This document shows, piece by piece, positions 1-33,832 of a DNA stretch of 64,000 nucleotides. The notes under the pieces are model-generated. The model worked only from the letters and a program-made list of their open reading frames with translations. It searched no databases and had not been told where the DNA came from. Source of the DNA: a virus; IMG/VR virus record IMGVR_UViG_3300028563_000012, positions 1 to 64,000 of that record; one strand, given 5' to 3'. Numbering within the stretch: the first letter of the stretch is position 1; every line of letters begins with the position of its first letter. The translations under genes were made by a program, and so were the position numbers.

Positions 1-1282
1 TTGGTGGCGTTTGCGCATATGAAATGAAATTCCGTGGGTTGACGGTGGTGGGATGTGTGCTGTGGCTGGGTGTTCCAAGGGACCCAACTGCCACCAGGCC
101 ACACGCAGGTTTGCCAGCCAGTGGGGGATCCCGAGCGCCCCATCACCAGCCATCCACGTGGCAATAATAGCCAGGCATTGTGCCCATCTCAACCATCCAC
201 GCTTTTTGATTTGATGGAAATGGCCGGTGTTTCCGAGCGCCTGTTGGCCCATCAATCGTGGGTGGCGGCGGCAGCATACCAAAGTCCATCAATCTCAACA
301 CTATGCTAGGTGGTGGTCTAGTAACTACTGGTAATCGTTGAATAGTGTAGTTAATTTTAATGCCTGGCGTCCCATGCGATGCGCGCCGATGTGGATTTGC
401 TGGCATTGTGTGTGCCGAACACCACCAATCACCACAGCCGTTTTCTCCACCAACACACCACACACACCGGGCATGTTGCCATCACTACTTCCGGGGGTAT
501 ATGCTTGCGGGTTTGACCACATCCATTGTGGATATGGCAAAACAACCAACATTCACCTAGGCAGGCAACCAACATTCACCGGGTTGGGTTCCACCTTATG
601 GGGTGTCTTGTGGGTTTGGCCACACATTCAGTCCTATACAGCAACCAACATTCACCTAGGCAGGCATTGGGCTTTCACCGGGTTGGGTTCCGCCTTATGG
701 GGTGTCTTTGCGGGTTTGGCCATGGTCCCTAATAGGGGTGGGCGCTTCTCGGGCAAACATGGGGTGAAGTCTACTAGGGGTGTTTCTAGGGTCTCCTCTA
801 GGGCTGTCGGATGCGGGACACACGTGGGTTGGGAGCACATGGCCAACAGGGTGTGGGTTTGTGGTGTCCAAGGGCCATGTGATTCGTGGCTGTGGTCTAA
901 GGAGGCCACTTCACCATGGCATTTCCGGGCTGGTTGGTGATGCGGATTGGCCCACTGATTCGTGGGCTGTGATCCCACTTTCTGGCTGTTCAGGGTTGGT
1001 GTGTTTTTCTGCCAAGATTGATGGTGGATTCAACACACCACTTATTGATGGCTGGTTTCTGTGGGTGATTCACTTTACATCTCGTCATCACACCGCTTTG
1101 TGCTTGTTCTTACTAGCTCGCCTAGGGTGTTTCGGAGTCGGGCACACGTGGGGTTGGAAATGGTTACCGCTGGTTTGTGGTGGGAATGGCCAATTTTGAT
1201 GTGGTGTTGCTGTGCGGCGGTAACTGGTGTGGCTTTTGGTTACCGCGCTTTTCCATCTGTGATTGGCGCTACGATCCGGGAC
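1..1282. other. Region without a convincing gene
   Basis: About 1.28 kb in which no reading frame on either strand looks like a real phage protein: the open frames are short, Trp/Cys/His-rich and mutually overlapping, and none has a good ribosome binding site. The plus strand is rich in G and T and holds a 99-bp tandem repeat (543-740), with a degenerate echo of the repeat just upstream near 490-535. It precedes the only plus-strand gene of the window, so it may hold a promoter, an origin or a packaging or termination signal. None of these is demonstrated. Confidence 0.6.
543..740. repeat. 99-bp tandem duplication
   Basis: Two adjacent copies of a roughly 99-bp unit, 543-641 and 642-740. The first 25 bases are identical in both copies (543-567 and 642-666). 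A second conserved stretch of about 47 bases (575-622 and 674-722) differs by two substitutions and one inserted base. Nothing in it looks coding. Non-coding tandem repeats in phages are often origins, packaging sites or regulatory regions; which applies here is unknown. Confidence 0.85.
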
Positions 1283-7337: not shown

Positions 7338-7570
7338 CAGTTGGCCACCTTAGCAATGTCTGGGTTGACGCACAGGGTGTCGCGGATGGCCTTGGCGAGA
7401 TGTTCAGCCGCCTGGATGGCGTCGGCGCGCTCGGGATACTTGCGATTGCTCAGAATCGTGATGGCGTCCGCGACGCTGAACGAGATCTTCCAACCGTCAA
7501 CATGATTCCCAATGACAGCCAATGTGACGGCAGCGTTCTCAGTCGGAGTGGGTGTTTGCTCTTGATCCAT
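7337..7570 (-). CDS. Hypothetical protein, 77 aa
   Basis: A short protein with an acidic Pro/Thr N-terminus, a beta segment and a C-terminal helix (ADAIQAAEHLAKAIRDTL). It starts inside the 3-prime end of the glycosylase gene (overlap 32 bases), and its stop overlaps the start of the next gene. No family recognised. Confidence 0.6.
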   Translation of the reverse strand: MDQEQTPTPTENAAVTLAVIGNHVDGWKISFSVADAITILSNRKYPERADAIQAAEHLAKAIRDTLCVNPDIAKVAN

Positions 7571-8138
7571 GCGCGAGTTCAGATGCTAGTTTCATGTCCT
7601 TGATGAACTCTTCTTTGCGCTTTGGGTCAGCGACGCGTAAAAGGTATGCCGGATGATAGGTGGGAATGGCTGGAATGATTGATCTTTTACCCTTCCACGT
7701 CCAACCAGTTTCCATCTCGGTCCCGCGCATTCGAGTGATGGGAGCATTGCCGCCCGTCAAAGCCCGAAAGGCTGTCGAGCCGAGCAGCAACACCGCTTTG
7801 GGTTGTACGGCTTGTAGCAGCGCATCGAGCCGCGGCGAGCATGCAACCATCTCGCTGTCATGCGGCTGCCGGTTCTGCGGCGGGCGGCAGCCGCAGACGT
7901 TCGTGATGTAGGCGTCCATGGACATGTCCAAGCCTGCCTCAGTGCCAAGCTCGCGCATGAGGCGGCCAGCCTTCCCGATGAACGGGATCCCGCGCTCGTC
8001 TTCTTCAGCACCAGGTGCTTCGCCGATGAGCATCAGGTCACAAGGCACGGGCCCGGTGCCGATCACAACACGTTGGCGAAGTGCGTGGAGCGGGCAACGT
8101 TGGCAATCAGCCCAAAGTGATTCGATACGTTCAATCAT
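7539..8138 (-). CDS. Uracil-DNA glycosylase, family 4 type (Fe-S)
   Basis: A 199-residue protein. The active-site motif GEAPGAEEDERG (residues about 39-50) is followed by PFIGKAG and TNVCGCRPPQNRQP, and the C-terminal HPAYLLR supplies the second active-site motif. Cys12, Cys15, Cys84 and Cys100 match the four cysteines that hold the 4Fe-4S cluster in family 4 enzymes. These enzymes excise uracil from DNA, starting base-excision repair. The ATG at 8138 overlaps the upstream stop. It lies beside replication nucleases. Whether it acts on uracil or another pyrimidine in this phage is unknown. Confidence 0.88.
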   Translation of the reverse strand: MIERIESLWADCQRCPLHALRQRVVIGTGPVPCDLMLIGEAPGAEEDERGIPFIGKAGRLMRELGTEAGLDMSMDAYITNVCGCRPPQNRQPHDSEMVACSPRLDALLQAVQPKAVLLLGSTAFRALTGGNAPITRMRGTEMETGWTWKGKRSIIPAIPTYHPAYLLRVADPKRKEEFIKDMKLASELAHGSRANTHSD

Positions 8139-8380
8139 CACCGATCCATGACGTCAAAAACATCAGGCGGCAACCCATCGTACTCATCGCCCGCATCTTG
8201 ACGTTCAGCACGCATGAGCTGGCGCACCACCTTATGGTTGTTTGACTTGGGAAAGAACTTCATGCGCAACAACTTGTGTTGCACCAGCAGACTCTTGTAA
8301 CGATGTTCCCAGTAGCAATCCAAGCAAATATGTGGGCAAAATGTCGATTTGATCCTGATGATTACAGGATTTTCAAGCAT
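8138..8380 (-). CDS. Hypothetical protein, 80 aa
   Basis: A small basic protein with a Cys/His cluster (STFCPHICLDCYWEH) suggesting zinc binding, then a basic helix and an acidic tail. It overlaps the exonuclease gene by eight bases. Function unknown. Confidence 0.6.
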   Translation of the reverse strand: MLENPVIIRIKSTFCPHICLDCYWEHRYKSLLVQHKLLRMKFFPKSNNHKVVRQLMRAERQDAGDEYDGLPPDVFDVMDR

Positions 8381-19094: not shown

Positions 19095-22000
19095 CTACGG
19101 TTCGATCACGGTCACAGCCGCTTCGATCTTGTTGTCCAGGAAATATGTGCGTTTTTCCTTGGTCAACTTGAACTTGGCAATGACACCACGATGTAGTATT
19201 TGTTGAAAGGACTCCCAGCTGCTGGCAAAACACAAACATTCGCGGTGCAGCCCGTCTGATCCGATCAACCCCAAAAACCCCATTTCATTGCCCTTCTTGT
19301 CAGTTTTTTGCATCACCCGAACCACAAGCGCTGACATCTTCCATATCCTGTCTTCGCAAATGGGCAACACATGCTTCCCGCCCGGACGCCATCCGTCCCA
19401 CAAGCATAACTCAAGCGGATCAAAACCTGGGCTGGTTGCGCCTTGATCCTCGGCACCAATCTTGGCCTTCAACTCGTCAAGGTCCACAAGAAAGCTGGCA
19501 CGCATGGAGTGGTACTGCTTGTTGATCACGACGTGTCCAGCAACAACGGTGCCAGCGCCGCGCTCCAGCAACGGCCTGTAGATTTCATAATCACTCACAT
19601 CAATCTTCACACGCTGGTTACGCCCGGACATGTCTTCAACATTTATGTTGGCATAACGCTTGCCCCACCCCATCTTGGCTTTGTCTTCATCGCTTGGTTC
19701 CTCACCAGAATGGAAATCGCCAACCTGATTTTGACGCACCTCGATGATCCTGCCCCACATCCAAGCGTCCGGGTTGTCCCAAATCGCCTCATCGTCCATC
19801 TTCATCCAAACGGTGCGCATGCCTTCGATCATGGGCACATACGGGGCCAGCGGATCCTCGCCGCATGCCATCGGGTTGATGCGCTTGGCAATGTCTTCCG
19901 CTACGTCAGCAGGCCACTTCGGAGCAGCCGCAGATGCTCGAATGATGGCACGCAACTTGTCTTGCCAACCTTTGTTGGCTTTGCCGACATGGACCCACAA
20001 CTTTTCCAGGTTCTCATAGAGCCATTTGGTGTTGGGGACCATGCGATCGAATGCGCCACCCTGGATGAGGGCGTTGACCACGCCCTTATGGCAACGGCGG
20101 CGATCGACGCGCTCTGCAAAATCAACGAAGTCCTTGTATGGGCCGGCTGCTGCGATGGCTCGCACTGCGGCCTCGCCAACGCCCTTGATGTTGGATACTG
20201 CTCCGACGATGGCCCCGCCTTCGATGGTCCAGTTGCATGGATCCTTGGAATTGATGTCAGGCATGAGAACATCGATGCCCATACGCTTGCAGGCGCGCAC
20301 CATCCGGATGACCTTGTCGGTATCGGGCTCGACTTTCAACAGAGCCCACATGAACTCCATTGGATAATGGGTCTTCAAGTACATCTCGCGATAGGCAATC
20401 AAGCCGTATGCGACGCTGTGGGCCTTGTTGAATCCGTATGAGCCGAAGAACTTGATTTGTTCGATCAGCTTGGATGCCAACTCGGGCGTCAGCCCATGTT
20501 CGATGGCACCCTTGACGAAGTTCTCGCGCTCCTTGGCTATTGCGTCATCACCGTACTTTTTGGCAATCTTGCGGCGCAAGCTATCAGACGTTGCCGGGCT
20601 GAAACCTGCGACGTCCGTGAAAATCTTCATCACGTGCTCTTGGTAGACGATGACCCCCAACGTGTCCTTGCATATTTCATCCACGAGCGGGTGGATTGAC
20701 ACAATCTTCTTGGGATCCTTCTTGCGCTTCAGGTATTCTGTGGCAAGACCTGAGCGAGCAGTCCCAGGGCGATCCAAGGCGACCATGGCAGACACGTCAT
20801 CAAAACTGGTGAACTCAACACCATCACAAATCTTGTCTGCTGACACCGTGTCGAATTGGAAGATGCCGATGTAGTGGTGGTTGGTGAAGTTGGCCAAAGT
20901 TGGCTTGTCATCGAGTGGCAGTTTAAGCCAATCAATTTCAACCCCATGTCTCTCTGCCACAGCCTCACGGCAAAAACGCATCGCTGACAGGTTGCGAATG
21001 CCTAGTATGTCCATCTTCACCAGGCCAAGGTCGGACACGCCATACATGTCGACCGCAGTCACCACTTTGGGAGTGCCATCCCCTTTCTGGCTGCGAATCT
21101 CCAGCGGCACGACATCGATGAGCGGCACTGGGCTCACCACAACGCCCGCGGCGTGAACCCCGAGTGCTTTGACCTGGCCCTCCAACTTCTTGGCGTACTC
21201 CAAAACCTCTGGATAACGCTCGTTGAAACGCTGGCACACTGGGAATTCCTTGAACGAGTCCTCGATGGTCATGCTGGCGCGTTCATCACCGCTGCTTCGC
21301 TCAACAACGGCATCCACCACAGGTTGGATCTCACGCAGTGGGATGTCCATGATTCGAGCAATATCACGCAAACACCCCTTGCCCGTCAACTTGTTGTTGG
21401 TGCCTATCTGCGATGCGTTGTCTTCACCATAGCGCTTGTGCAGAAACGTGATCACCTCATCCCGGCGGGCATCCTCGAAATCCATGTCAACGTCAGGAAG
21501 ATCAATGCGGTCAGGGCTGAGAAAACGTTCAAACAACAAGCCAAACATGATTGGATCCAAGTCCGTGATGCCGAGCAAGAATGAGACCAAACTACCACCA
21601 GCGGACCCACGAGCTGGGCCGCACTCGATTTTGGCCGCGCGGGCCCATTTGTAAACGTCCCACACCACCAACATGTAACGCGTTACCTTCTGCGCCTCCA
21701 TGCGTTCAAGCTCATAACGCAGCCGGTCCATGTAGATCTTGCGACAATCACCAATGGAGATCCTGCGGCGAGCAGCCTCAGCCACAATCAACCTGTCAAT
21801 GTCGCGCTCTTTCCACCCACGAAGGCAAAGCGAGCGAATGTACTTGTTCTCATCATCCGAGAATTCAGGCGGGATGGACACCTTGGGAACCAGCGCCTTG
21901 AACCTATCGACTTCCAACTTGGCTTGGAGCTTGGATTCCAACTCCATGGTGGTGTCGAGCGCGCCTTGGACCTGCGCGTCGGTCATATAGGGGTGGAACT

Positions 22001-22868
22001 GCCGGAAGCTTTCGGCCATTGCTGCTCTTGGCTTGAGCCAAAAGTCGTGCGTGGTGAACGTCCAACGGTTCGGATCGCTCAAGGTCGTGTGGCTGTGGAG
22101 GCACAGCATTGCCTCTTGGTATTTCCAATCATCCTCTGCGATGTAGTGTGCATCCTGAGTTGCGATCAGTGACATGCCGAAGCGCTTGGACAACGCAATC
22201 GTCGCCTTGTTGACTCTGACTTGGTCTGGCATGTTGTGAGGCATCACCTCGCCATAAAAATCATCGCCAAATGTTTCACGCAAACGCGTAACCTTGTCGA
22301 TGGCACCGCCAGGCTTGCCATCAAGGTAATCACTGCCAATTGAGCCGATCTGGCAACCCGACAACACCACCAATCCCTCGTGATTTGCGAGCAAGCAATC
22401 GAGATCCACGCGTGGCCGCCGATAAAACCCCTTGACCCATCCCAGCGTTGTGACGCGCATCAGGTTCTTCAAACCCACAGAATCTTTGGCCAAGACGGTC
22501 AAGTGATAACGGCCGGTGATGCCCTCGTCATGCTCGAATTTCTTGATGGCCTCCTTGTGAAGCGACTTGGGAAGGTTGTCTGTGACACGGGCCTTCTCTT
22601 CCGGCGTCATGCCGCGGCGCGCCATATCCTTACACAAATACAGCTCAACCCCGTAGATGGGTCGCACAACATCATCCGGGTTTTCTTCGATTTCCTTGTG
22701 CAACCTTGTGAGCTGTCGAACAGTCCCGTGCTCCGTGAAAGCAATGGCTGGTTGCCCCATGGCTTTGGCAGCCGTCATGAAATCATGCATCTTTCCACAG
22801 CCGTCTAGCGTGGAATATTCGCTATGCGTATGGAAATGACAAAAGTCATCAGATTTGACATCGCTCAT
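19095..22868 (-). CDS. dnaE: DNA polymerase III alpha subunit (DnaE type)
   Basis: A 1257-residue C-family replicative polymerase. The N-terminal PHP domain has FCHFHTHSEYSTLDG and FTEHGTV (Glu in place of the usual Asp). The palm has GPARGSAGGS (residues 417-426) and the catalytic LPDVDMDFED with Asp459, Asp461 and Asp463. A finger region with FGSYGFNKAHSVAYG follows, then a helix-hairpin-helix segment (IKGVGEAAVRAI) and a C-terminal OB fold. Length is close to bacterial DnaE and no intein is visible. Many large phages use family A or B polymerases instead, so a DnaE is distinctive. The ATG overlaps the upstream TGA. Confidence 0.95.
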   Translation of the reverse strand: MSDVKSDDFCHFHTHSEYSTLDGCGKMHDFMTAAKAMGQPAIAFTEHGTVRQLTRLHKEIEENPDDVVRPIYGVELYLCKDMARRGMTPEEKARVTDNLPKSLHKEAIKKFEHDEGITGRYHLTVLAKDSVGLKNLMRVTTLGWVKGFYRRPRVDLDCLLANHEGLVVLSGCQIGSIGSDYLDGKPGGAIDKVTRLRETFGDDFYGEVMPHNMPDQVRVNKATIALSKRFGMSLIATQDAHYIAEDDWKYQEAMLCLHSHTTLSDPNRWTFTTHDFWLKPRAAMAESFRQFHPYMTDAQVQGALDTTMELESKLQAKLEVDRFKALVPKVSIPPEFSDDENKYIRSLCLRGWKERDIDRLIVAEAARRRISIGDCRKIYMDRLRYELERMEAQKVTRYMLVVWDVYKWARAAKIECGPARGSAGGSLVSFLLGITDLDPIMFGLLFERFLSPDRIDLPDVDMDFEDARRDEVITFLHKRYGEDNASQIGTNNKLTGKGCLRDIARIMDIPLREIQPVVDAVVERSSGDERASMTIEDSFKEFPVCQRFNERYPEVLEYAKKLEGQVKALGVHAAGVVVSPVPLIDVVPLEIRSQKGDGTPKVVTAVDMYGVSDLGLVKMDILGIRNLSAMRFCREAVAERHGVEIDWLKLPLDDKPTLANFTNHHYIGIFQFDTVSADKICDGVEFTSFDDVSAMVALDRPGTARSGLATEYLKRKKDPKKIVSIHPLVDEICKDTLGVIVYQEHVMKIFTDVAGFSPATSDSLRRKIAKKYGDDAIAKERENFVKGAIEHGLTPELASKLIEQIKFFGSYGFNKAHSVAYGLIAYREMYLKTHYPMEFMWALLKVEPDTDKVIRMVRACKRMGIDVLMPDINSKDPCNWTIEGGAIVGAVSNIKGVGEAAVRAIAAAGPYKDFVDFAERVDRRRCHKGVVNALIQGGAFDRMVPNTKWLYENLEKLWVHVGKANKGWQDKLRAIIRASAAAPKWPADVAEDIAKRINPMACGEDPLAPYVPMIEGMRTVWMKMDDEAIWDNPDAWMWGRIIEVRQNQVGDFHSGEEPSDEDKAKMGWGKRYANINVEDMSGRNQRVKIDVSDYEIYRPLLERGAGTVVAGHVVINKQYHSMRASFLVDLDELKAKIGAEDQGATSPGFDPLELCLWDGWRPGGKHVLPICEDRIWKMSALVVRVMQKTDKKGNEMGFLGLIGSDGLHRECLCFASSWESFQQILHRGVIAKFKLTKEKRTYFLDNKIEAAVTVIEP

Positions 22869-23326
22869 CGTCTTGACATTGCCCTTCGATGGCGCCGGGC
22901 TCGCGCCTTACCGTGCCAAGCCCCATCAAAGCCGTTGCATTCGTTGCAGCTCAACTTGATCAGACCACGCTTGTGGTCACGTTCGTACATGCGCATGCGG
23001 TGCATCATGTTCATCTTGCGCGGCTCCCAATCACGAACGTTATCGCCATGATCGAAACAGAGCAGCACAGGTGCGCCCTTGCTGTCCATGTCACCAATCC
23101 TGGCACCGCACTCGCCACATTCATTCCCAAGCTCAGCACGCAATCGATCGCGGCGCTCACAAGCCTGCAAGTAAACACGATGTTTCCGCCTTCTCCAATG
23201 GAGCTTGTGATCACGCTTTGGCTTGGTTTTTTCATTGTGGCCGAATTCGAAATCAAGCCCGACACCGCCGAACGTCGAGATGCCGCTGTCATCCGAATCA
23301 GAAACTGGCTGCACGTGTTTCGCCAT
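22865..23326 (-). CDS. HNH / endonuclease VII-like zinc protein
   Basis: A 153-residue very basic protein. CGECGARIG, FDHGDNVRDW and LSCNECNGFDG give the Cys-x2-Cys, Asp-His, Cys-x2-Cys order of HNH-type nucleases related to phage recombination endonuclease VII. The first 65 residues are charged and probably disordered. It could resolve junctions or nick DNA. It overlaps the polymerase start by four bases and the kinase end by 29. Confidence 0.65.
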   Translation of the reverse strand: MAKHVQPVSDSDDSGISTFGGVGLDFEFGHNEKTKPKRDHKLHWRRRKHRVYLQACERRDRLRAELGNECGECGARIGDMDSKGAPVLLCFDHGDNVRDWEPRKMNMMHRMRMYERDHKRGLIKLSCNECNGFDGAWHGKARARRHRRAMSRR

Positions 23327-23900
23327 GAATCATCACCCGTTCGATTATCTCTTCAGGGCTTTGCCCATTCGCAATAATCACCCGGATGTTGCCCGTGGGG
23401 ATGTGGCAAACGACATGATCAATGGCTTTAGCCTCCCAATCACCGACGCGTCCACCGCGTGCCCTGCGCACCTCGTATGGTTGTCGCATCAACACCAAAA
23501 TGGTATGGTTCCCGGACAACAGCTTCACCCAAAGTCGCAGAGCAGCCAAGCCATTCTTGCTCAGCCTTGTCGTGCTCAACCATGGCTCGTTGCCGTAGGA
23601 GCTTGGCGGCATCCCGTCCCACATATCATCATCGTAAGCCAACCCTGAGATCAGCGACCTGTCAAGGATGACGTCGGTGCAATGAGTTGCCCCCAGCAAA
23701 TCGGCAACAACAAGATCCTCGCGCCAGGTATTGACCCGCATGGGGATGTCTTTCAACTCGGGGTATGCGTCGCCGGGCTGGTGGCTGTCGGGTGCGCGCC
23801 TGAATGGGCGGTACACGGGCGCATGGATGAAATTCGCCAAACTCTTGGCGACTGTTCCCTTGCCAACGCCTGATGCGCCTTCGAAAATCACCACTGCCAT
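23298..23900 (-). CDS. P-loop nucleotide kinase, thymidylate-kinase-like
   Basis: A 200-residue P-loop kinase. Walker A GASGVGKGT is at residues 8-16. A central ILDRSLISGLAYDDD matches the DR-x-x-S-x-x-AY signature of dTMP kinases. A later LMRQPYEVRRARGGR fits the lid region. Expected reaction: phosphorylation of a dNMP or a modified dUMP derivative. In phages with hypermodified thymine a distant P-loop kinase acts on 5-hydroxymethyluracil in DNA; this sequence looks closer to TMK, so either is possible. First gene downstream of the aminotransferase. Confidence 0.75.
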   Translation of the reverse strand: MAVVIFEGASGVGKGTVAKSLANFIHAPVYRPFRRAPDSHQPGDAYPELKDIPMRVNTWREDLVVADLLGATHCTDVILDRSLISGLAYDDDMWDGMPPSSYGNEPWLSTTRLSKNGLAALRLWVKLLSGNHTILVLMRQPYEVRRARGGRVGDWEAKAIDHVVCHIPTGNIRVIIANGQSPEEIIERVMIHGETRAASF

Positions 23901-23904
23901 TGGG

Positions 23905-25101
23905 CTAAAACTCCAAGCAACGTTTGTAGGCGCGCGACAATGATTCCATGGCCATGGCCATGGTTGGCATGCCGATATTCAACGGCGGCGTGATTTTGAT
24001 GGTGCCCGGCCCATCTCTGAACGTTGGGAGCAGCAGGCCCTCGGCCAATGCCTCGCGCTCCAACATGCGACGGTCAACAGGCACATCACAAGCAATCATC
24101 ATGCCGACTGCTCGCACTTGCCCCATGTCTGGGAATGAGTCGCGAGTTTCCAATGCAAACTTGGTGAAGGATCCGACCGAGATCACGCTGTCCAAGTTGC
24201 TTTGATTCTCCAACCAAGAGCACATCACGTTCACGAACGCATTGGACATTGGGTTGCCTCCGAATGTGCTGAAATGGGTGCCGGGCGTGAACGCGTTGCC
24301 CGCGTTGCCACGCGCCAAGGCCAGCCCCACAGGGAAGCCCATGCCGATGCCCTTGGCCAGACAGGTGATGTCGGGCTCAAGCCCAACGCGTTGTGCGTAA
24401 GTCGGTGCGCCAGTGCGTCCCGAGCCCGTCTGAACCTCATCGAAGATGAGCAAGCTGCCAACGCTGTGGGCCATGGCTTGGATGCTCTGCAACACTTCGG
24501 TTTCGTACGGCACGACATCATTGTTACCCATCACAGGTGCCATGATCACCGCGGCCAACGATGGTCCAAGGCTGATGATCATGTCACACATGCGCTCGAT
24601 GGGCGCGTGGATGAAGCCGCCTGGATAGGGGCCCATGCCTTCATAGTGATAAGATGGCCCATCACCCGCAGCAATGGCACCGTACGTCCGGCCGTGAAAG
24701 CCGCCCGACACGGACAAAATGTTGTTCCTTGGCGGGTTTGACAACTTTGCCTGCTTGTAATGGTACAAGCGCGCCATCTTGATGGCAGCTTCCACGGCCT
24801 CGGTTCCGCTATTGCACCAAAACACACGACTCGCGCCCATGAGCTTGCAGACCCGCTCGCTGACATAATTGCGCAATGGGTTGGTGTACAAGTTTGGAGC
24901 ATGGGCACCAAAATGGAAATCGGCCAGACATGACATGGCTTCGTTGATGCTTGCCCAAGACGTTCCCAAAGATGCTGTGCCTGTATCCGTGAACAAGTCG
25001 AGCAGCTTACGGCCGTCTGCGCGTACCAAGTACGGCCCATCAGCCCCAACGATGTTGAAATTTCTGAACTCAACTGTATCCATTAGATGGTTGGCCGTCA
25101 T
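23905..25101 (-). CDS. Class III PLP-dependent aminotransferase (ArgD/GSAM-like)
   Basis: A 398-residue fold-type I enzyme. FWCNSGTEAVEAAIKMAR (residues 94-111), GGFHGRTYGAIAA, IFDEVQTGSGRTG with Asp221 that holds the PLP ring nitrogen, and LAKGIGMG with the Schiff-base Lys250 are all present. The HFSTFGGNPMSNAF segment is typical of acetylornithine or ornithine aminotransferases. The usual Glu-Pro-x-Gln-Gly-Glu loop is replaced by APVMGNNDVV, implying changed substrate use. An AGAGGG site precedes the ATG. Candidate amine donors or acceptors are ornithine-like compounds or an aminoalkyl base adduct (inference). Confidence 0.88.
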   Translation of the reverse strand: MTANHLMDTVEFRNFNIVGADGPYLVRADGRKLLDLFTDTGTASLGTSWASINEAMSCLADFHFGAHAPNLYTNPLRNYVSERVCKLMGASRVFWCNSGTEAVEAAIKMARLYHYKQAKLSNPPRNNILSVSGGFHGRTYGAIAAGDGPSYHYEGMGPYPGGFIHAPIERMCDMIISLGPSLAAVIMAPVMGNNDVVPYETEVLQSIQAMAHSVGSLLIFDEVQTGSGRTGAPTYAQRVGLEPDITCLAKGIGMGFPVGLALARGNAGNAFTPGTHFSTFGGNPMSNAFVNVMCSWLENQSNLDSVISVGSFTKFALETRDSFPDMGQVRAVGMMIACDVPVDRRMLEREALAEGLLLPTFRDGPGTIKITPPLNIGMPTMAMAMESLSRAYKRCLEF

Positions 25102-25103
25102 TG

Positions 25104-25278
25104 TTACCCTCTTTGCGCTTCCTTCAAATCATGTTCCCAAATGCGAACAACACCCCAGCCAGCAGTGATGGCGCGCTGATCATGTTTTGCATCCGCCTGT
25201 CGTCTCTCTGTGTTCTCGTTCGGATGGTGGATGGGACAGACTCCCGCCAGCAGCGGTCAGCCTGCCACGTCTAGCCAT
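25104..25278 (-). pseudogene. Vsr-like endonuclease remnant, frame-disrupted
   Basis: A stop-free frame at 25107-25256 encodes 50 residues including CPIHHPNENTERRQADAKHD and TAGWGVVRIWEHDLKEAQ. These match the pattern of the last third of Vsr-type nucleases (Cys-Pro, His, Asn, Arg/Asp, Leu...Gly-Trp-x-Val-x-x-Ile-Trp-Glu). No usual start codon follows its upstream TGA (25257-25259). The nearest start (MARRGR at 25278) is in another frame, so a one-base indel would be needed to join them. It is far shorter than Vsr (about 130-150 residues), lacking the catalytic Asp region. Probably a decayed homing or patch-repair-type nuclease gene. Confidence 0.5.
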
Positions 25279-25304
25279 CTCTGATGAATCGTACGTCCGA
25301 AGCA

Positions 25305-26291
25305 TCACTTCCACAGATACGGATCACAGCCCCACAACGCACGATACTCTTCAGCTCTTTCCAACATCTCATCCTGACGAGGGATGATGTTGCGAGTCTT
25401 GCGAAGCGCAACAAGCCGATCATCAGGAGTCGCACCAGGCACATGCTTCGAACCTTCTTCATCGGAGCACAGATACAAGGGGCAAGGGCTGTGTGCGTCG
25501 GATCCGTCCACGCGCCTGGAATTCTCCAGTCGGTAAAGGCAACTGCTGAATTTTCCATCATTCCCCACGCAAGGCGGGTGAACGATTTTGCGAAACATCG
25601 GGTGCACCTTTTCGGCAAGCTCGTTCACGATGCCGGTAATGATCGGGCCCCAAAGCCCCATCTGAAGGATGTAGCAACCGCGCTTCCCCAAGATGTGGAG
25701 CAAGGCTTGAAGCGTCAACTTCCAGCTGATGCGGTGTTGGGCGCCGAGCGGGATGAGGTCACGCGCATCTTCCATGGGCACCCCGGCTGCCACCAAATCC
25801 TTGTAGGCATCTTGGATAAGGTGCATGGTTGACACGAATCGATTCACAGCAAGGAATGAATCACCATCCGGACGCTTGCATGTTTTCCCCTTCAGCGTCT
25901 CGGGCACGCGATACATCCCGCGATCCGCAAACGTGCTCATGTCCTGGATGCGCATCGATTGCGACCACCAGGTTGACGTGGCAATGTCCGGAATGGTATC
26001 CACGCCATAGTTGTCGCCAGCGCGGGCGCCAATTCGATGTCGTACCATTTGCTCCCGGAACGAGACACTGACGCCCTCCAGCATGAAGGTGAACTCAATG
26101 TCTTCTCCCACGGGGATTTGCTGCCGGATGACTTGCCAAAACAGCTCTTCCAGCTTGGAATGCGGCACGGTGTCGCGGACTTCCTTGATGGACAACGGCA
26201 CCGGGCCGTCAACTTTGCTGGCTTCCCAGAGCAGCCAGACGGTTGCCAACGGATCGGGCGTAGACGAAACAAGCGTGACTTTCGGTTTCAT
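25305..26291 (-). CDS. thyX: Divergent ThyX-like flavin-dependent thymidylate synthase
   Basis: A 328-residue protein. REQMVRHRIGAR (Arg84-His-Arg86) matches the start of the ThyX signature RHR-x-x-S; the following Ser-x-Arg part (WWSQSMRIQDM) comes about 18 residues late, so the signature loop carries an insertion. A later PLGAQHRISWKLTLQALLHI and LGKRGCYILQMGLW fit the ThyX flavin and dUMP-binding helices, but the usual Glu-Ile-Arg is changed. The last 90 residues add Cys residues (HPPCVGNDGKFSSC, HSPCPLYLC), resembling a metal site. ThyX methylates dUMP using FAD and methylene-folate; the changes suggest a different one-carbon product or substrate. Confidence 0.72.
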   Translation of the reverse strand: MKPKVTLVSSTPDPLATVWLLWEASKVDGPVPLSIKEVRDTVPHSKLEELFWQVIRQQIPVGEDIEFTFMLEGVSVSFREQMVRHRIGARAGDNYGVDTIPDIATSTWWSQSMRIQDMSTFADRGMYRVPETLKGKTCKRPDGDSFLAVNRFVSTMHLIQDAYKDLVAAGVPMEDARDLIPLGAQHRISWKLTLQALLHILGKRGCYILQMGLWGPIITGIVNELAEKVHPMFRKIVHPPCVGNDGKFSSCLYRLENSRRVDGSDAHSPCPLYLCSDEEGSKHVPGATPDDRLVALRKTRNIIPRQDEMLERAEEYRALWGCDPYLWK

Positions 26292-26309
26292 GGCATTGGA
26301 CCTTTCAGT

Positions 26310-27239
26310 TCATATATTTGCCAACGCTGCTTTGATGTCGTCCCAATTGCGACACCCAAGTACGTTGGCATGTTTGAAGTTCTCTATGTCATCCCACCCC
26401 GGCAGTTTCAACACCTTCACACCGATGGCTGCCAATTCGGATGCATATTTGTGCCGATCCTCGATCATCGCGATGATTCGAGCAGGTTGCATCTGACGGA
26501 CGGCATCGGCCTTGTCGTTGGTGAAAATGATATGATCTTGACCCAATCCTACCTTGTCACACCATTCCATGGTGTCTGCGTACACGCGGGTGTGCCGGCG
26601 GTACGGTCTTGACGTCACCATGATGAGGCGCCGATCCCTAACAGCATGGGCGCAATATTCATGAGTTCGGCCGCGCCATCTCGAAAGCGTGTTGACGGCA
26701 CCAGAAATGGTCCCAAGCGTCAGGAATCCACCCTCAGCATAGAAGCGCTCTTTGGCCTTTTCTTGTTCCAAGGAGCCTTCGGGCGCGCCGTTGATGTCGA
26801 TGCCGCGAGCAGCAGTCCAAGCCGGAAAGCCATGCGCCCAATCAGCCACGCAATCGTCCAAGTCGCAGAGCAACACGTCAACATCGCGCAAGCTGTCACA
26901 TTGCGCCTTCCATTTGGCGTCAACCACCATGGTCTTGCGATTGAACTCAACCAACATCATCTCGGGTGTCACCCCGTGCAATGCCATCAGCGCAACGAGG
27001 TATTTCATCACGTCAATGCCGTCTTCCGCAACGGCGGCAGGGTGACGCTTGACAGCCTTCATGATGATGTGATACTTGTCGATGTCCAAGCGCTTTTGAA
27101 GCTCGCCAAGCTCCTCATACATCCCAAGGATCAGTTCCTTGGTCAGCGCGCTCTTATCATCGTCTGACAATCCTTCCCATGAATGCCAGAGAGATTGCTG
27201 CTCAATTTGCCGCCGCCATATTTTTTCCAAGTCTCCCAC
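26310..27239 (-). CDS. MazG-like dNTP pyrophosphatase fused to HAD phosphatase
   Basis: A 309-residue two-domain protein. Residues about 1-105 are helical with YEELGELQKRL and EDGIDVMKYLVAL, the metal-binding Glu/Asp pattern of MazG/dUTPase-like pyrophosphohydrolases. Residues about 118-309 have HAD motifs: LLCDLDDCVADW (nucleophile Asp), MVTSRPYRR and IEDRHKYASELAAIGVKVL, like 5-prime nucleotidases. A fused enzyme could convert a dNTP to dNMP and then to nucleoside. GTG at 27239 is the only start before the MazG helix. Removal of a canonical dNTP from the pool is a plausible job. Confidence 0.75.
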   Translation of the reverse strand: MGDLEKIWRRQIEQQSLWHSWEGLSDDDKSALTKELILGMYEELGELQKRLDIDKYHIIMKAVKRHPAAVAEDGIDVMKYLVALMALHGVTPEMMLVEFNRKTMVVDAKWKAQCDSLRDVDVLLCDLDDCVADWAHGFPAWTAARGIDINGAPEGSLEQEKAKERFYAEGGFLTLGTISGAVNTLSRWRGRTHEYCAHAVRDRRLIMVTSRPYRRHTRVYADTMEWCDKVGLGQDHIIFTNDKADAVRQMQPARIIAMIEDRHKYASELAAIGVKVLKLPGWDDIENFKHANVLGCRNWDDIKAALANI

Positions 27240-27327
27240 GTCTTACGACTCCATTTCTATTGCCTTTCAACGCGTCACTTAGCGCTCGACGGTGCTCATC
27301 ATAGAACTTGTCAGAAGCGTTGATCAT
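27202..27327 (-). CDS. Possible 41-aa protein bridging two genes
   Basis: A short ORF (MINASDKFYDEHRRALSDAL...) beginning inside the end of the FAD-protein gene and ending inside the start of the MazG-HAD gene. It fills what would otherwise be a 71-base gap. The N-terminal half looks like a charged helix. There is no clear ribosome binding site, so support is positional only. Confidence 0.35.
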   Translation of the reverse strand: MINASDKFYDEHRRALSDALKGNRNGVVRRGRLGKNMAAAN

Positions 27328-28312
27328 GTGCCCACTGAATCATCTTTGTCAATGACTTTTCGGCAGTGGAGCGCGGATCCCATTCGGCGAAGCGTCCAAG
27401 CATGAGCCAGTTCTTCGGCAACACCAATGGGCCGGGCAACGGTTTGAGGTGCCCATTCAACACCCTTGGCTCTGACAATGTCTCCTGTACAAACATGTCG
27501 CGATCGGAACGATGCGAAAGCAGCGGCATCAAATCATCGGTGTCGAGTGGCTTGGGCGCATCGGGCTTGCCCCAAGGGATCTCAAGTTGGGCCGTGGTCG
27601 GACTCGTCTTGGTGATCCGTGACACGGTCGAAGCCAGCGGCGTGTACAGGTAATCCCACCACATGTCGGTTTGGATGCCGCTAACGTCCACAATGCTGAG
27701 CTTGTTGCAAGACGTGTCCGGGATGCCCGATTGGACGGTGAAAGGCACAATCTTCCTGAGAACGGGCAGCGGCAGCGTGTTGATCAAGAAATCATAAGGC
27801 ACATTTCGATCATGGACCGTGACGCTTTTGGCATCAACCCGTCGCACCCGAGCGAAGGTGTGAACCTTGCAAGACTCCTCGGCTTGTTTTGCCAGAGCAG
27901 CAACCACGACCGCATTATCACACCGAGCCGACCAATTGTGCTTCGACCCAGGATCATTCATGCAGTCGGCACGAAACCCTTCCAGTGATTTCCTCGTTTT
28001 CTTCCAGTGTGCCGTCTGAATCTGCAACCGATCCAAGGTGCTCATCCCCATGAGACACTCCGGATGGCTCTTTGCAACTCCGTCAATGTAAATGGCCCCA
28101 CGCGGCAGATGGAAACTGTAATGGATCCCCAAAGCGTCCAACATGTCTGACGCGTCCTTGGTCGCCCGCAGGTACTTCAGACCACCAGCCGCGAACGTTC
28201 CGCCCAATTTGTCGCCGGCCTCAATCAGCGTGACATCGACTCCGCCCTTGTTTTTCAAGACATGGGCCGCAATCAAGCCCGAGATCCCGCCACCCAAAAT
28301 TACAACTCTCAT
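27311..28312 (-). CDS. FAD-dependent amine-oxidase-like oxidoreductase
   Basis: A 333-residue flavoprotein. The start is set at the ATG 28312 because MRVVILGGGISGLIAA begins the Rossmann dinucleotide-binding motif and this ATG overlaps the upstream stop (ATGA). An Ala/Gly loop (GGTFAAGGLKYLRAT) follows. The C-terminal WLMLGRFAEWDPR resembles the second FAD-contact motif of amine oxidase/UDP-galactopyranose mutase-type proteins. Expected chemistry is oxidation of an amine or rearrangement using FAD; the substrate is unknown. Flavin amine oxidases occur in known thymine-hypermodification clusters, which makes its place next to the PLP enzyme and ThyX notable. Confidence 0.75.
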   Translation of the reverse strand: MRVVILGGGISGLIAAHVLKNKGGVDVTLIEAGDKLGGTFAAGGLKYLRATKDASDMLDALGIHYSFHLPRGAIYIDGVAKSHPECLMGMSTLDRLQIQTAHWKKTRKSLEGFRADCMNDPGSKHNWSARCDNAVVVAALAKQAEESCKVHTFARVRRVDAKSVTVHDRNVPYDFLINTLPLPVLRKIVPFTVQSGIPDTSCNKLSIVDVSGIQTDMWWDYLYTPLASTVSRITKTSPTTAQLEIPWGKPDAPKPLDTDDLMPLLSHRSDRDMFVQETLSEPRVLNGHLKPLPGPLVLPKNWLMLGRFAEWDPRSTAEKSLTKMIQWAHDQRF

Positions 28313-29349
28313 CGTGGCGCCTTTGCCAAATGACACATGATGGCGCGAATGTTGTCCATGCGAAGTTGCCCCGGAATGACATCGTTGACGCAACACTTGA
28401 ATGCCCCGTCGTTCCAAACGACGATGTCTGCCTTGACAATGCTTTGCAGCAAAGGATCTTCCTTCAGCATCGGCAATTGCACACGAAATCCCGGATCCCG
28501 AGTCCTGATGCGCCAGGATGCAAGCGGGCGACGCTTGGCGCCCGCGGCGATGGATTGATACACAGTCACGTAATCGGACTTGGTGGTGCGATCAATCATG
28601 TACAACTCACCGGGCGATGCTGAGTTTGCATCATGCGCAACCCCAACGTCGCAGAGCTTGGCCACCTCGACCATGATTGTTGCGACTTGTTTCACGGCAT
28701 CCGGGAAGCGGCCTGATGTGTGCTCGACTTTCAGTGTCACCGGCACTGCTTTGGCCTTCGTCTTTGGCGTTTGCTTGGCCGTCTTTTGCGCCAATAAGCG
28801 CTCTGTGAGTTGAACGATTTGCTCGGGTGACTTGCTCTTCAACATGTCTTGTTGGTTGCGATTGGTTGCCTCTGCGACCATTCGCAAAGCCGAGCAGCGT
28901 GAAAGCCAAGCGCAAGCAGGCTCCGTCAATTTCGTAGTCGGATTCACCCCGCCGATGCAAACATGATCAGGCTCGTTGAACCCGAGGCAAGGCGGAATAT
29001 CAACGTTGCTAGGCTGTTGCGCCTCAGACAACCCGGCAACCAAATCCAGGTACCAAGGAACGATCTTGGATAGATGCCCCACGGATGACGTGCTTTGCTT
29101 TAGCTTGCCAGTCGTTGCGTCGAATTGCCCCAAGATCACGACTGTGAAGTGCTGGCCACGCTTCAAATCCGACAAAAACACAACACTTCCCCAATCGTAC
29201 TCCTCAATGCATCTGCGCCATTCGATGGACTGCTGCCAATACAACGGGCTGGCATGAAACCCGTGTTTTGGAGAAGGATCCAAGCTGTGTTGCGCTATCA
29301 CATTGCGGACAAACGCCGCATCCATCTCATTCGGGTTGCTGTATACCAT
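28309..29349 (-). CDS. Unknown protein with central Cys cluster
   Basis: A 346-residue alpha/beta protein not recognised. A central block (CLGFNEPDHVC ... ACAWLSRC) has four Cys residues in an order like the C-terminal Cys cluster of the putative SSB (CFG...D...C...C). Flanking regions are beta-rich (DWGSVVFLSDLKRG, HFTVVILGQF), and the second half has helices then strands (GELYMIDRTTKSDYVTVYQS). It is translationally coupled to the FAD gene, so a linked role is likely. It does not look like a known DNA glycosylase or transferase. Confidence 0.6.
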   Translation of the reverse strand: MVYSNPNEMDAAFVRNVIAQHSLDPSPKHGFHASPLYWQQSIEWRRCIEEYDWGSVVFLSDLKRGQHFTVVILGQFDATTGKLKQSTSSVGHLSKIVPWYLDLVAGLSEAQQPSNVDIPPCLGFNEPDHVCIGGVNPTTKLTEPACAWLSRCSALRMVAEATNRNQQDMLKSKSPEQIVQLTERLLAQKTAKQTPKTKAKAVPVTLKVEHTSGRFPDAVKQVATIMVEVAKLCDVGVAHDANSASPGELYMIDRTTKSDYVTVYQSIAAGAKRRPLASWRIRTRDPGFRVQLPMLKEDPLLQSIVKADIVVWNDGAFKCCVNDVIPGQLRMDNIRAIMCHLAKAPR

Positions 29350-31436: not shown

Positions 31437-31621
31437 CCGTGCAACAAGCGTTCCCGAAGCGTTTCCAATTCAACCGCCAACGCGAGTGCGTGGGTGCGCG
31501 CTTCCCTGAAAGCCTCCTCGAACTGCCCGCGGGTCTGTGCCGCGAACAACTCGGTGCGAGCTTGCCCGAGAGACGTCAATGCGCTTTCAACAGCCTGAAG
31601 TTGTTCCGTTTGCGTTGCCAT
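31433..31621 (-). CDS. Small helical protein, 62 aa
   Basis: Almost entirely helical with heptad-like spacing (MATQTEQLQAVESAL... LALAVELETLRERLL). It is the first gene after the 201-bp repeat copy at 31631-31831 in the direction of transcription. Possibly an oligomeric structural or regulatory miniprotein. Function unknown. Confidence 0.55.
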   Translation of the reverse strand: MATQTEQLQAVESALTSLGQARTELFAAQTRGQFEEAFREARTHALALAVELETLRERLLHG

Positions 31622-31630
31622 GTAGAGACT

Positions 31631-31831
31631 CTTATGCGAGAATCAGGCCGAAATGATGAAGTGGGATTTATGGCACTTAGCATGGCAATAATGCTATCAG
31701 CTACGAAAACTTTACGTGGCTGTTTGCCATCAGTGTTGGCAAAGATGCGCTTCGCGCATGAAATGCCAAAGGAATTGGCAAAGCGCCGTAAAACGTCGCC
31801 ATCTCGTCAAAGCGACGAAAAACGGCGGTCA
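31631..31831 (-). repeat. 201-bp duplicated structured block, copy A
   Basis: Matches 33632-33832 at 199 of 201 positions. Read on the minus strand it begins exactly at the TGA stop of the gene at 31829 and ends ten bases before the next gene. It can fold: nested stems 31784-31789 with 31822-31827 and 31794-31799 with 31812-31817, and a separate stem 31745-31750 with 31754-31759. One minus-strand frame is open for about 58 codons but has no good start. A structured 3-prime UTR RNA, a mobile fragment or a recombination scar are all possible. Confidence 0.9.
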
Positions 31832-32227
31832 AGGCGATTGCGGCGGAGCGTCTGCCCCATCTGGATACCTGCTGATCAGGTAACGTGACAAGTAGTCGAG
31901 GATCGACTTGGCAATGGGGTGATCCGGATTGCCGGTCATGCCACTCGGCTCAAACTTCATGTTGAGCAAGTGCCTTGCAAGCTCGTAAAGCGGCACCCCG
32001 TGTTGAAGTGAAACGCTCATGGTTATCCCGAGCGCGTCAAGTGTCCCACGCAGCGTTGACCCAACCGAGTCGCACCGCAAGAACACTTCAGCCAACCGTT
32101 TTGGATTATCAGGAAACCCTGATGTGTGGACGTAACAACGCATCACGCCACCAGTTGTGTGTATTTTCAACAACTTGCACAACGACTCGCGCTCTTCACT
32201 GAGCTTCACCTTTTTCGGAGCATCCAT
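31829..32227 (-). CDS. Free-standing TSCPD-like domain of ribonucleotide reductase
   Basis: A 132-residue protein. FLRCDSVGSTLRGTLDALGI, then QHGVPLYELARHLL and FEPSGMTGN, plus SILDYLSRYL match the TSCPD domain found at the C-terminus of B12-dependent ribonucleotide reductases (NrdJ) and as stand-alone phage proteins. The catalytic reductase core is not in this window. The domain function is poorly known. Its stop is the first base of the 201-bp block. Confidence 0.75.
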   Translation of the reverse strand: MDAPKKVKLSEERESLCKLLKIHTTGGVMRCYVHTSGFPDNPKRLAEVFLRCDSVGSTLRGTLDALGITMSVSLQHGVPLYELARHLLNMKFEPSGMTGNPDHPIAKSILDYLSRYLISRYPDGADAPPQSP

Positions 32228-33631: not shown

Positions 33632-33832
33632 CTTATGCGAGAATCAGGCCGAAATGGTGAAATGGGATTTATGGCACTTAGCATGGCAATAATGCTATCA
33701 GCTACGAAAACTTTACGTGGCTGTTTGCCATCAGTGTTGGCAAAGATGCGCTTCGCGCATGAAATGCCAAAGGAATTGGCAAAGCGCCGTAAAACGTCGC
33801 CATCTCGTCAAAGCGACGAAAAACGGCGGTCA
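33632..33832 (-). repeat. 201-bp duplicated structured block, copy B
   Basis: Nearly identical to 31631-31831, exactly 2001 bases away, differing only by two substitutions close together near 33657-33661. It begins at the TGA stop of the primase gene (33830-33832) on the minus strand and ends about ten bases before the AGGAGG of the next gene. The same hairpins as in copy A are present. Confidence 0.9.

What the first reader, a model, noticed from the sequence alone, without database searches (positions are those of the whole stretch)
23298..29349. Candidate nucleotide-remodelling or DNA base hypermodification cluster
Seen: TMK-like P-loop kinase, class III PLP aminotransferase with an altered substrate loop, divergent ThyX with insertion and Cys-rich tail, MazG-HAD fusion, FAD amine-oxidase-like protein and an unknown Cys-motif protein, on one strand and mostly coupled. 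Known: thymine hypermodification in phages such as SP10, ViI and phiW-14 uses a thymidylate-synthase-like enzyme, a P-loop kinase, PLP and flavin enzymes. Inference: this block may make and decorate a modified pyrimidine, or remodel the dNTP pool, using a different enzyme set. The pyrophosphorylase/transferase expected in the known pathway is not recognised here.
Basis: partly seen in the sequence, partly recalled or inferred. Interest (0 to 1): 0.8.

Follow-up and report, generated by a model that had tools for sequence, protein, structure and literature searches.

The report
ThyX-centred phage pyrimidine-modification gene module
Uncultured phages carry a conserved five-gene set, built around an altered version of the enzyme that normally makes DNA's letter T, that probably makes a chemically changed T building block for the phage's own DNA, by a route different from the known phage pathways.

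Summary
The cluster is real: a TMK-like kinase, class III aminotransferase (AT), altered ThyX, MazG/dUTPase-NT5C fusion and FAD amine-oxidase-like protein on one strand beside a DnaE polymerase. It lies in a 102.5-kb phage genome with 150-b terminal repeats. The "Cys-motif protein" belongs to a neighbouring sigma-like gene family, not the pathway.

The same genes recur in 19 non-redundant uncultured phage contigs (ThyX about 40-57% identical to the window's) in three relative orders, once on a different phage backbone, so they form a functional module. None was found in cultured phages (FAD search) or bacterial genomes (ThyX search).

The ThyX has Trp at canonical N/S85 and loses E/Q86. Variant ThyX proteins of SP-15 and YerA41, phages with proven modified thymidine, share these changes. 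One relative and SP-15 also encode a canonical ThyX. No ThyA, hmdU-DNA kinase or amino-acid:DNA transferase was found, although ViI controls rang.

Best explanation (0.6): ThyX makes a 5-substituted dUMP; FAD enzyme and AT supply or aminate the side chain; the kinase activates it; MazG-NT5C destroys dUTP/dTTP. Chemistry is inferred.

The parts
27311..28312 (-). FAD-dependent oxidoreductase of the amine-oxidase / protoporphyrinogen oxidase / UGM superfamily, 333 aa
   Evidence: Pfam Amino_oxidase 39 bits; AlphaFold model (mean pLDDT 68) matched by Foldseek to L-amino-acid oxidase, nicotine oxidoreductase, PPO and UGM folds; conserved N-terminal GGG.SGL and C-terminal LGRFA.W.PR motif
26310..27239 (-). 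Fusion of a MazG/dUTPase_2-like NTP pyrophosphohydrolase and an NT5C-like deoxypyrimidine 5'-nucleotidase (HAD), 309 aa
   Evidence: No Pfam hit in the window copy; relatives hit PF06941 NT5C (E=4e-11), MazG, and PF08761 dUTPase_2 (E=2.5e-5); profile matches human 5'(3')-deoxyribonucleotidase; invariant E43/E46/D76 and D126xD128
25305..26291 (-). Variant ThyX ('ThyX-W'), 328 aa: 18-residue insertion inside the ThyX motif, Trp109 at canonical position 85, Ser110 at 86, Ile115 at 91, Cys-containing tail
   Evidence: PF02511 65 bits; Foldseek to T. maritima ThyX; alignments
23905..25101 (-). Class III PLP aminotransferase, 398 aa, acetylornithine-transaminase-like, with the ExxQGE switch motif replaced by APVMGNN
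   Evidence: PF00202 E=4.7e-67; argD models 259-265 bits, below their cut-offs; alignment to 2eh6; motif survey in 19 relatives; PLP Lys250 conserved
23298..23900 (-). TMK-like P-loop (deoxy)nucleotide kinase, 200 aa
   Evidence: PHROG thymidylate kinase E=2.5e-6; profile of 7 relatives hits Aquifex thymidylate kinase E=4.8e-8; invariant GxxGxGK and DR motif
19095..22868 (-). DnaE-type DNA polymerase III alpha, 1257 aa, downstream partner in most relatives; expected to polymerise the product
   Evidence: PF07733/PF17657/PF02811; family 3 beside the module in most group A contigs
28309..29349 (-). Sigma-like-C-terminal / Cys-motif protein: regulatory neighbour, probably not part of the pathway
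   Evidence: Same similarity family as upstream sigma70-like and Cys-motif genes in relatives

Best explanation
The five genes (FAD enzyme, MazG/dUTPase-NT5C, ThyX-W, class III aminotransferase, TMK-like kinase) form a nucleotide-level pathway that makes a 5-substituted, probably amino-bearing, deoxyuridine triphosphate to replace thymine in phage DNA. ThyX-W attaches a carbon substituent to C5 of dUMP but does not simply make dTMP. The FAD enzyme and the aminotransferase act around it in one of two ways: they oxidise and aminate the new group (for example hydroxymethyl to formyl to aminomethyl), or they make an aldehyde donor that the ThyX flavin captures and transfers. The kinase phosphorylates the modified monophosphate. 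The MazG/dUTPase-NT5C fusion hydrolyses dUTP/dTTP and the canonical monophosphates, so that the polymerase is given the modified triphosphate. Shown: gene content, conservation as a module, residue changes, absence of the known pathway's enzymes. Inferred: all reactions, their order, and the presence of a modified base.
For: Module: five genes in 19 non-redundant contigs in three relative orders; L052/L053 carry it on another backbone (SNF2 helicase/primase families shared with group B). ThyX changes: W85 in 43 of 43 variant sequences and 0 of 10 canonical ones, E/Q86 lost, mostly aromatic then hydrophobic at 177-178, new Trp near 184; the same in SP-15 gp130, LIS04, YerA41 and phiXF1. SP-15 DNA carries dihydroxypentyl-dU and its authors guessed gp130 as modified-base synthase (PMC5977210); YerA41 carries a ~1-kDa thymidine substitution (PMC9023294). 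N85 and Y91 of T. maritima ThyX hold the folate-gating His53 (PMC11940539), and both are replaced here. A relative (G007, L092:3188-3901) and SP-15 (gp9) encode a canonical ThyX as well, so the variant is not needed for dTMP there. ThyX can take a carbon from free formaldehyde via a flavin carbinolamine (PMC8316439), and a ThyX homologue, PolB, has moved to another uridine nucleotide (PMC5003785). NT5C/dUTPase_2/MazG domains. No ThyA or trimeric dUTPase in a genome that is probably complete (150-b direct terminal repeat).
Against: No nucleoside analysis exists and the phage is uncultured. A maximum-likelihood tree with the motif columns masked puts canonical ThyX on one side (99/95), but an AU test does not reject grouping the SP-15/YerA41 proteins with canonical ThyX (p=0.46), so their link to this ThyX rests mainly on shared motifs. 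Some ordinary phage ThyX proteins (PB1, VA-RY-3) also lack Y91. The relatives' module copies were found by ThyX similarity and most share a phage backbone. AT, kinase and FAD substrates cannot be read from sequence; the FAD model has a low-confidence substrate domain. The known modified-T phages with this kind of ThyX were not seen to have the AT/FAD/kinase set near it.
Confidence: 0.6

Rival explanations
1. Ordinary dTTP supply: the divergent ThyX still makes dTMP, the kinase makes dTDP, and MazG-NT5C trims dUTP. The AT and FAD enzyme feed the carbon donor (for example formaldehyde or one-carbon units from amines) to a ThyX that lost folate binding.
For: Thy1 family score above cut-off and S88/R90/R174 equivalents retained; ThyX can use free formaldehyde; this genome has no other thymidylate synthase.
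Against: A relative with the full module (G007) and SP-15 also encode a fully canonical ThyX; the TIGR02170 thyX equivalog cut-off is missed (54 of 88 bits); the N85/E86/Y91 and 177-178 changes are unneeded for dTMP synthesis; an aminotransferase has no obvious role.
Confidence: 0.2
2. Two unrelated sets side by side: a nucleotide set (ThyX, kinase, MazG-NT5C) and an amino-acid, polyamine or cofactor set (AT, FAD enzyme).
For: AT is closest to acetylornithine aminotransferases and the FAD fold to amino-acid/amine oxidases, both common in cell metabolism.
Against: The five genes are interleaved (FAD, MazG-NT5C, then ThyX/AT/kinase in three orders) and kept together in 19 contigs, including a different backbone; the AT lacks the glutamate switch of acetylornithine/ornithine enzymes.
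Confidence: 0.12
3. Modification of cytosine rather than thymine: ThyX-W acts on dCMP and the product replaces dC.
For: ThyX-W substrate is unknown; phage hydroxymethylation of dCMP is well known for ThyA-type enzymes (general knowledge).
Against: The arginine that activates N3 of dUMP (R174 equivalent, R204) is invariant in the aligned relatives; NT5C and dUTPase_2 domains point to the T/U branch.
Confidence: 0.06

Closest known systems
Bacillus phage SP-15 gp130 (and relatives in Carin-5, vB_SagM-GXN1, Va2, 1.031.O, phiXF1, YerA41)
   Same: Phage ThyX homologue with Trp at position 85, E/Q86 lost, aromatic-hydrophobic at 177-178 and a Trp after the Q180 region; SP-15 and YerA41 DNA carry proven hypermodified thymidine; SP-15 has a second, canonical ThyX (gp9)
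   Different: The gp130 group lacks the RHR triplet and the motif insertion, has a large internal insertion, and no AT/FAD/TMK/MazG-NT5C set was seen beside it in the annotated neighbourhoods; products there are dihydroxypentyl- or oligosaccharide-type
Listeria phage LIS04 gp124 (SP-15-like phage)
   Same: Best isolate hit of the window ThyX (28% identity over residues 1-275, E=7e-20) with SYWTQTSR and SWIAQATLW motifs
   Different: Canonical motif spacing, no insertion; no AT/FAD/kinase beside it; its DNA chemistry is unknown to me
Thymidine hypermodification of ViI, SP10, phiW-14, M6 (HMUDK + ADDT)
   Same: TS-like enzyme, P-loop kinase, PLP and flavin enzymes in one phage
   Different: Known route uses a ThyA-like hydroxymethylase and post-replicative HMUDK and ADDT; none is present here
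Canonical flavin-dependent thymidylate synthase ThyX (T. maritima TM0449)
   Same: Fold, S88, R90 and R174 equivalents, RHR triplet
   Different: 18-residue insertion in the ThyX motif, N85 to W, E86 to S, Y91 to I, H178 to I, extra Cys-containing C-terminal tail
PolB, UMP C5 methylase of polyoxin biosynthesis
   Same: ThyX homologue recruited to another pyrimidine-modification task
   Different: Still methylates with CH2-THF; W85 signature not tested in it

Membership tests
HMUDK/ADDT thymidine hypermodification (ViI, SP10, phiW-14, M6) | ThyA-like dUMP hydroxymethylase (PF00303) | tested here: not met
   No match in G000 or 9 relatives; ViI control matches
HMUDK/ADDT thymidine hypermodification (ViI, SP10, phiW-14, M6) | 5-hmdU DNA kinase (PF18723) | tested here: not met
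   No match in G000 or 6 relatives; ViI E=1.3e-84
HMUDK/ADDT thymidine hypermodification (ViI, SP10, phiW-14, M6) | Amino-acid/amine:DNA transferase (PF18724 ADDT) | tested here: not met
   No match in G000 or 6 relatives; ViI E=4.9e-60
HMUDK/ADDT thymidine hypermodification (ViI, SP10, phiW-14, M6) | Modified thymidine in virion DNA | not testable with these tools
   Uncultured phage, no nucleoside data
ThyX / flavin-dependent thymidylate synthase | Thy1 homology and fold | tested here: met
   PF02511 65 bits, cut-off 24.8; Foldseek to TM0449 prob 1.00
ThyX / flavin-dependent thymidylate synthase | ThyX motif RHRX7S with N/S/Q/A85, E/Q86, Y91 | tested here: not met
   RHR kept, but 25 residues instead of 7 before the S88 equivalent; W109, S110, I115
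ThyX / flavin-dependent thymidylate synthase | Curated thyX equivalog cut-off (TIGR02170) | tested here: not met
   54.3 bits, cut-off 87.9
ThyX-W variant with SP-15 gp130 and YerA41 | W85 and non-E/Q at 86 | tested here: met
   All 43 variant sequences, window included
ThyX-W variant with SP-15 gp130 and YerA41 | Single clade apart from canonical ThyX | tested here: inconclusive
   Split 99/95 in the tree, 100/99 without the longest branches, but the AU test does not reject the alternative, p=0.458
Class III aminotransferase (acetylornithine/ornithine type) | PF00202 fold with PLP lysine and aspartate | tested here: met
   E=4.7e-67; invariant K250 and D221
Class III aminotransferase (acetylornithine/ornithine type) | Glutamate switch motif ExxQGE and argD cut-off | tested here: not met
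   APVMGNN in the window, GN or GH in most relatives; argD subfamily 259 of 410 bits
dTMP kinase (TIGR00041) | Curated equivalog cut-off | tested here: not met
   17.5 of 83.25 bits; P-loop and DR motif present
MazG/dUTPase_2 + NT5C fusion | Pfam domain hits in the family | tested here: met
   In relatives L008, L009, L062 (NT5C and MazG-type) and L052 (dUTPase_2); the window copy itself has no Pfam hit but aligns over its length

The most novel reading that the evidence does not exclude
ThyX-W is a C5-alkyl transferase that loads an aldehyde other than formaldehyde onto its flavin and couples it to dUMP. In this module the aminotransferase and FAD oxidase make that aldehyde (or aminate the product), giving a new class of amino-alkyl thymine analogue that fully replaces T, and the same enzyme family underlies the still unexplained five-carbon side chain of SP-15 DNA.
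Probability: 0.2. Interest if true: 0.93.

Novelty: new variant of a known kind. Interest (0 to 1): 0.72.

Why it matters
Known phage thymine hypermodification starts with a ThyA-type hydroxymethylase and finishes on DNA. A ThyX-based, nucleotide-level route with an aminotransferase would be a separate solution. It would also make the decades-old question of how SP-15 makes dihydroxypentyluracil directly testable, because the W85 signature marks gp130-type proteins as candidate C5-alkylating ThyX enzymes. It gives a simple sequence marker for phages likely to carry modified T, and candidate enzymes for making C5-aminated dU nucleotides.

Tried and rejected
FAD protein against the cultured-phage collection: no match, for both the window and L008 copies. 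ThyX profile in 84,980 bacterial and archaeal genomes: 71 pattern matches, none a relative. Profile comparison of A1 with SP-15 gp130: only the C-terminal LTGE..PPCPL stretch aligned, not significant as a family call. Tree placement of the SP-15/YerA41 proteins: not decisive. FAD structure model: core good, substrate domain below pLDDT 50, so no substrate inference. Literature searches for a ThyX-based DNA hypermodification pathway: only the SP-15 and YerA41 papers bear on it. Considered and rejected: the Cys-motif protein as a pathway member; glycosylation as the likely decoration here, because no glycosyltransferase was recognised among the roughly 30 proteins of this genome scanned with Pfam, which is not all of its genes.
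Full report
OBSERVATION. The window is the first 64 kb of a 102,534-base IMG/VR virus record with 150-base direct terminal repeats (1-150 against 102,386-102,534, 99.3%), so the genome is probably complete. Domain searches confirm the class III aminotransferase and Thy1 clearly, the FAD protein moderately, and the kinase weakly but consistently. The MazG-HAD assignment has no Pfam hit in the window copy but is firm in relatives, where the HAD part is NT5C (deoxypyrimidine 5'-nucleotidase) and the N-terminal part is MazG/dUTPase_2-like. The FAD gene should start at 28312. The Cys-motif protein belongs to the sigma-like/Cys-motif genes upstream of the module in relatives.

A CONSERVED MODULE. 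Searching viral contigs with the ThyX alignment gave 44 loci. Profiles of the five proteins find FAD, MazG-NT5C, ThyX and AT together in 19 non-redundant contigs, with the kinase in all but one that ends first (L080). Three relative orders of the five occur: FAD-MazGNT5C-ThyX-AT-kinase, FAD-MazGNT5C-AT-ThyX-kinase and FAD-MazGNT5C-AT-kinase-ThyX; a methyltransferase-like gene joins in five of the contigs. ThyX identities to the window are about 40-57%, while FAD, kinase and MazG-NT5C are 21-37% identical in the seven aligned representatives, so conservation of the set is not recent copying. L052/L053 carry the module on a backbone with a helicase and primase shared with a second phage group (B) and no DnaE beside it, yet their ThyX groups with the window's (96/87; again the nearest row). 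These facts point to a functional unit that moves between phages. Caveats: the loci were found through ThyX, and most of group A shares a DnaE backbone.

THE THYX IS ALTERED IN A TELLING WAY. In T. maritima numbering the motif runs from RHR (78-80) through N85, E86, S88, R90 to Y91. The canonical comparison sequences have N, S, Q or A at 85 and E or Q at 86 (V in one plasmid ThyX). All 43 variant sequences have W at 85 and not E/Q at 86; at 177-178 they have mostly W or F (sometimes Q, Y or T) and then I, L, F or V where the canonical set is mostly polar or basic; and a Trp follows at about 184. The environmental group also has an insertion of 18 or more residues inside the motif and a Cys-containing tail. 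S88, R90 and R174 equivalents are kept. In T. maritima ThyX, N85 and Y91 hold His53, which stacks on the folate (PMC11940539). Their replacement suggests a changed carbon-donor site (inference). Y91 is also missing in PB1-type phage ThyX, so that change alone is not diagnostic.

LINK TO PHAGES WITH KNOWN MODIFIED T. The best isolate hit is Listeria phage LIS04 gp124, from an SP-15-like phage. SP-15 gp130 and its relatives in YerA41, phiXF1, Carin-5, GXN1, Va2 and 1.031.O carry the same W85 and 177-178 changes. About half of SP-15 thymine is replaced by dihydroxypentyl-uracil, and the genome paper guessed gp130 as the modified-base synthase and gp9 as the real thymidylate synthase (PMC5977210). 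YerA41 thymidine bears a ~1-kDa, apparently oligosaccharide, substitution (PMC9023294). A tree with the diagnostic columns masked separates canonical ThyX from all variants (99/95; 100/99 without the longest branches), but an AU test does not reject placing the SP-15/YerA41 group with canonical ThyX (p=0.458). The link therefore rests on shared active-site changes, which could be convergent; convergence would still point to a shared function.

CANONICAL THYX COEXISTS. The 80-kb record of L058 (G007), which has the full module, also encodes a ThyX with a canonical motif (RHRLASYAQESTRY; 119 bits; L092:3188-3901), as SP-15 has gp9 beside gp130. The window genome and eight other relatives have only the variant and no ThyA.

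NOT THE KNOWN PATHWAY. PF18723 (HMUDK), PF18724 (ADDT) and PF00303 (ThyA) find nothing here or in relatives, while Salmonella phage ViI rings for all three. The expected 'pyrophosphorylase/transferase' is thus absent, not overlooked. A TMK-like kinase and a dUTPase/MazG-NT5C fusion fit synthesis at the nucleotide level, as in T4 or SPO1 (general knowledge), rather than on DNA.

AMINOTRANSFERASE AND FAD ENZYME. PLP lysine, the aspartate and the FHGRT arginine remain. The FAD model (pLDDT 68, substrate domain poor) matches the amine oxidase/PPO/UGM fold.

MECHANISM. Best supported: ThyX-W makes a 5-substituted dUMP; FAD enzyme and AT either convert hydroxymethyl to formyl to aminomethyl, or make an aldehyde that ThyX-W couples through its flavin; kinase and host NDK give the triphosphate; MazG-NT5C removes dUTP/dTTP and dUMP/dTMP; DnaE polymerises. 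Precedents: canonical ThyX uses free formaldehyde via a flavin N5-carbinolamine (PMC8316439); the ThyX homologue PolB methylates UMP (PMC5003785). Gene content, conservation and residue changes are shown; every reaction is inferred.

GROUP B. A second set of phages has ThyX-W beside PolA, an HD 5'-deoxynucleotidase, a nucleoside deoxyribosyltransferase and, in several, a radical SAM-SPASM enzyme and a second ThyX with F at 85 and Q for R90. This suggests ThyX-W is a shared first step with different tailoring enzymes.

VERDICT. Real, conserved and probably a new ThyX-based pyrimidine-modification route; chemistry unproven.

Noticed in passing
window 31602-31834, 33632-33832; record 84057-84265, 89995-90203, 95931-96163: Dispersed ~200-base repeat, five copies, 83-99% identical, same orientation. 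No Rfam match; the minus strand of one copy folds better than shuffles (z -3.3).
   Followed up: partly
window 1-150 and record 102386-102534: 150-base direct terminal repeat, 99.3% identical: the genome is probably complete.
   Followed up: yes
L063, L073, L078, L079, L083 (group B): A second, degenerate ThyX paralogue (SFFSE/QSHQ, no R90) a few kb upstream of ThyX-W, with a radical SAM-SPASM gene between them in several; possibly a heteromeric ThyX.
   Followed up: partly
L092:3188-3901 (G007, record of L058): Canonical ThyX near a probable dCMP deaminase in a phage that also has the module.
   Followed up: yes
L057:8765-10180: NAD-dependent epimerase/dehydratase inserted between ThyX-W and AT in one module.
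   Followed up: no
L037 and L036 (Vibrio phages 1.031.O and Va2): ThyX-W relatives lie near acyl-carrier-like, MazG, cytidylyltransferase and glycosyltransferase genes (1.031.O) or a TPP-binding protein and PEP mutase (Va2): candidate modification clusters.
   Followed up: no
window 7539-8141; L016:16978-17529: Uracil-DNA-glycosylase-superfamily protein and an MT-A70 adenine methyltransferase in the same genome.
   Followed up: no
L078:2624-3082: NADAR-domain gene beside the group B ThyX paralogue.
   Followed up: no
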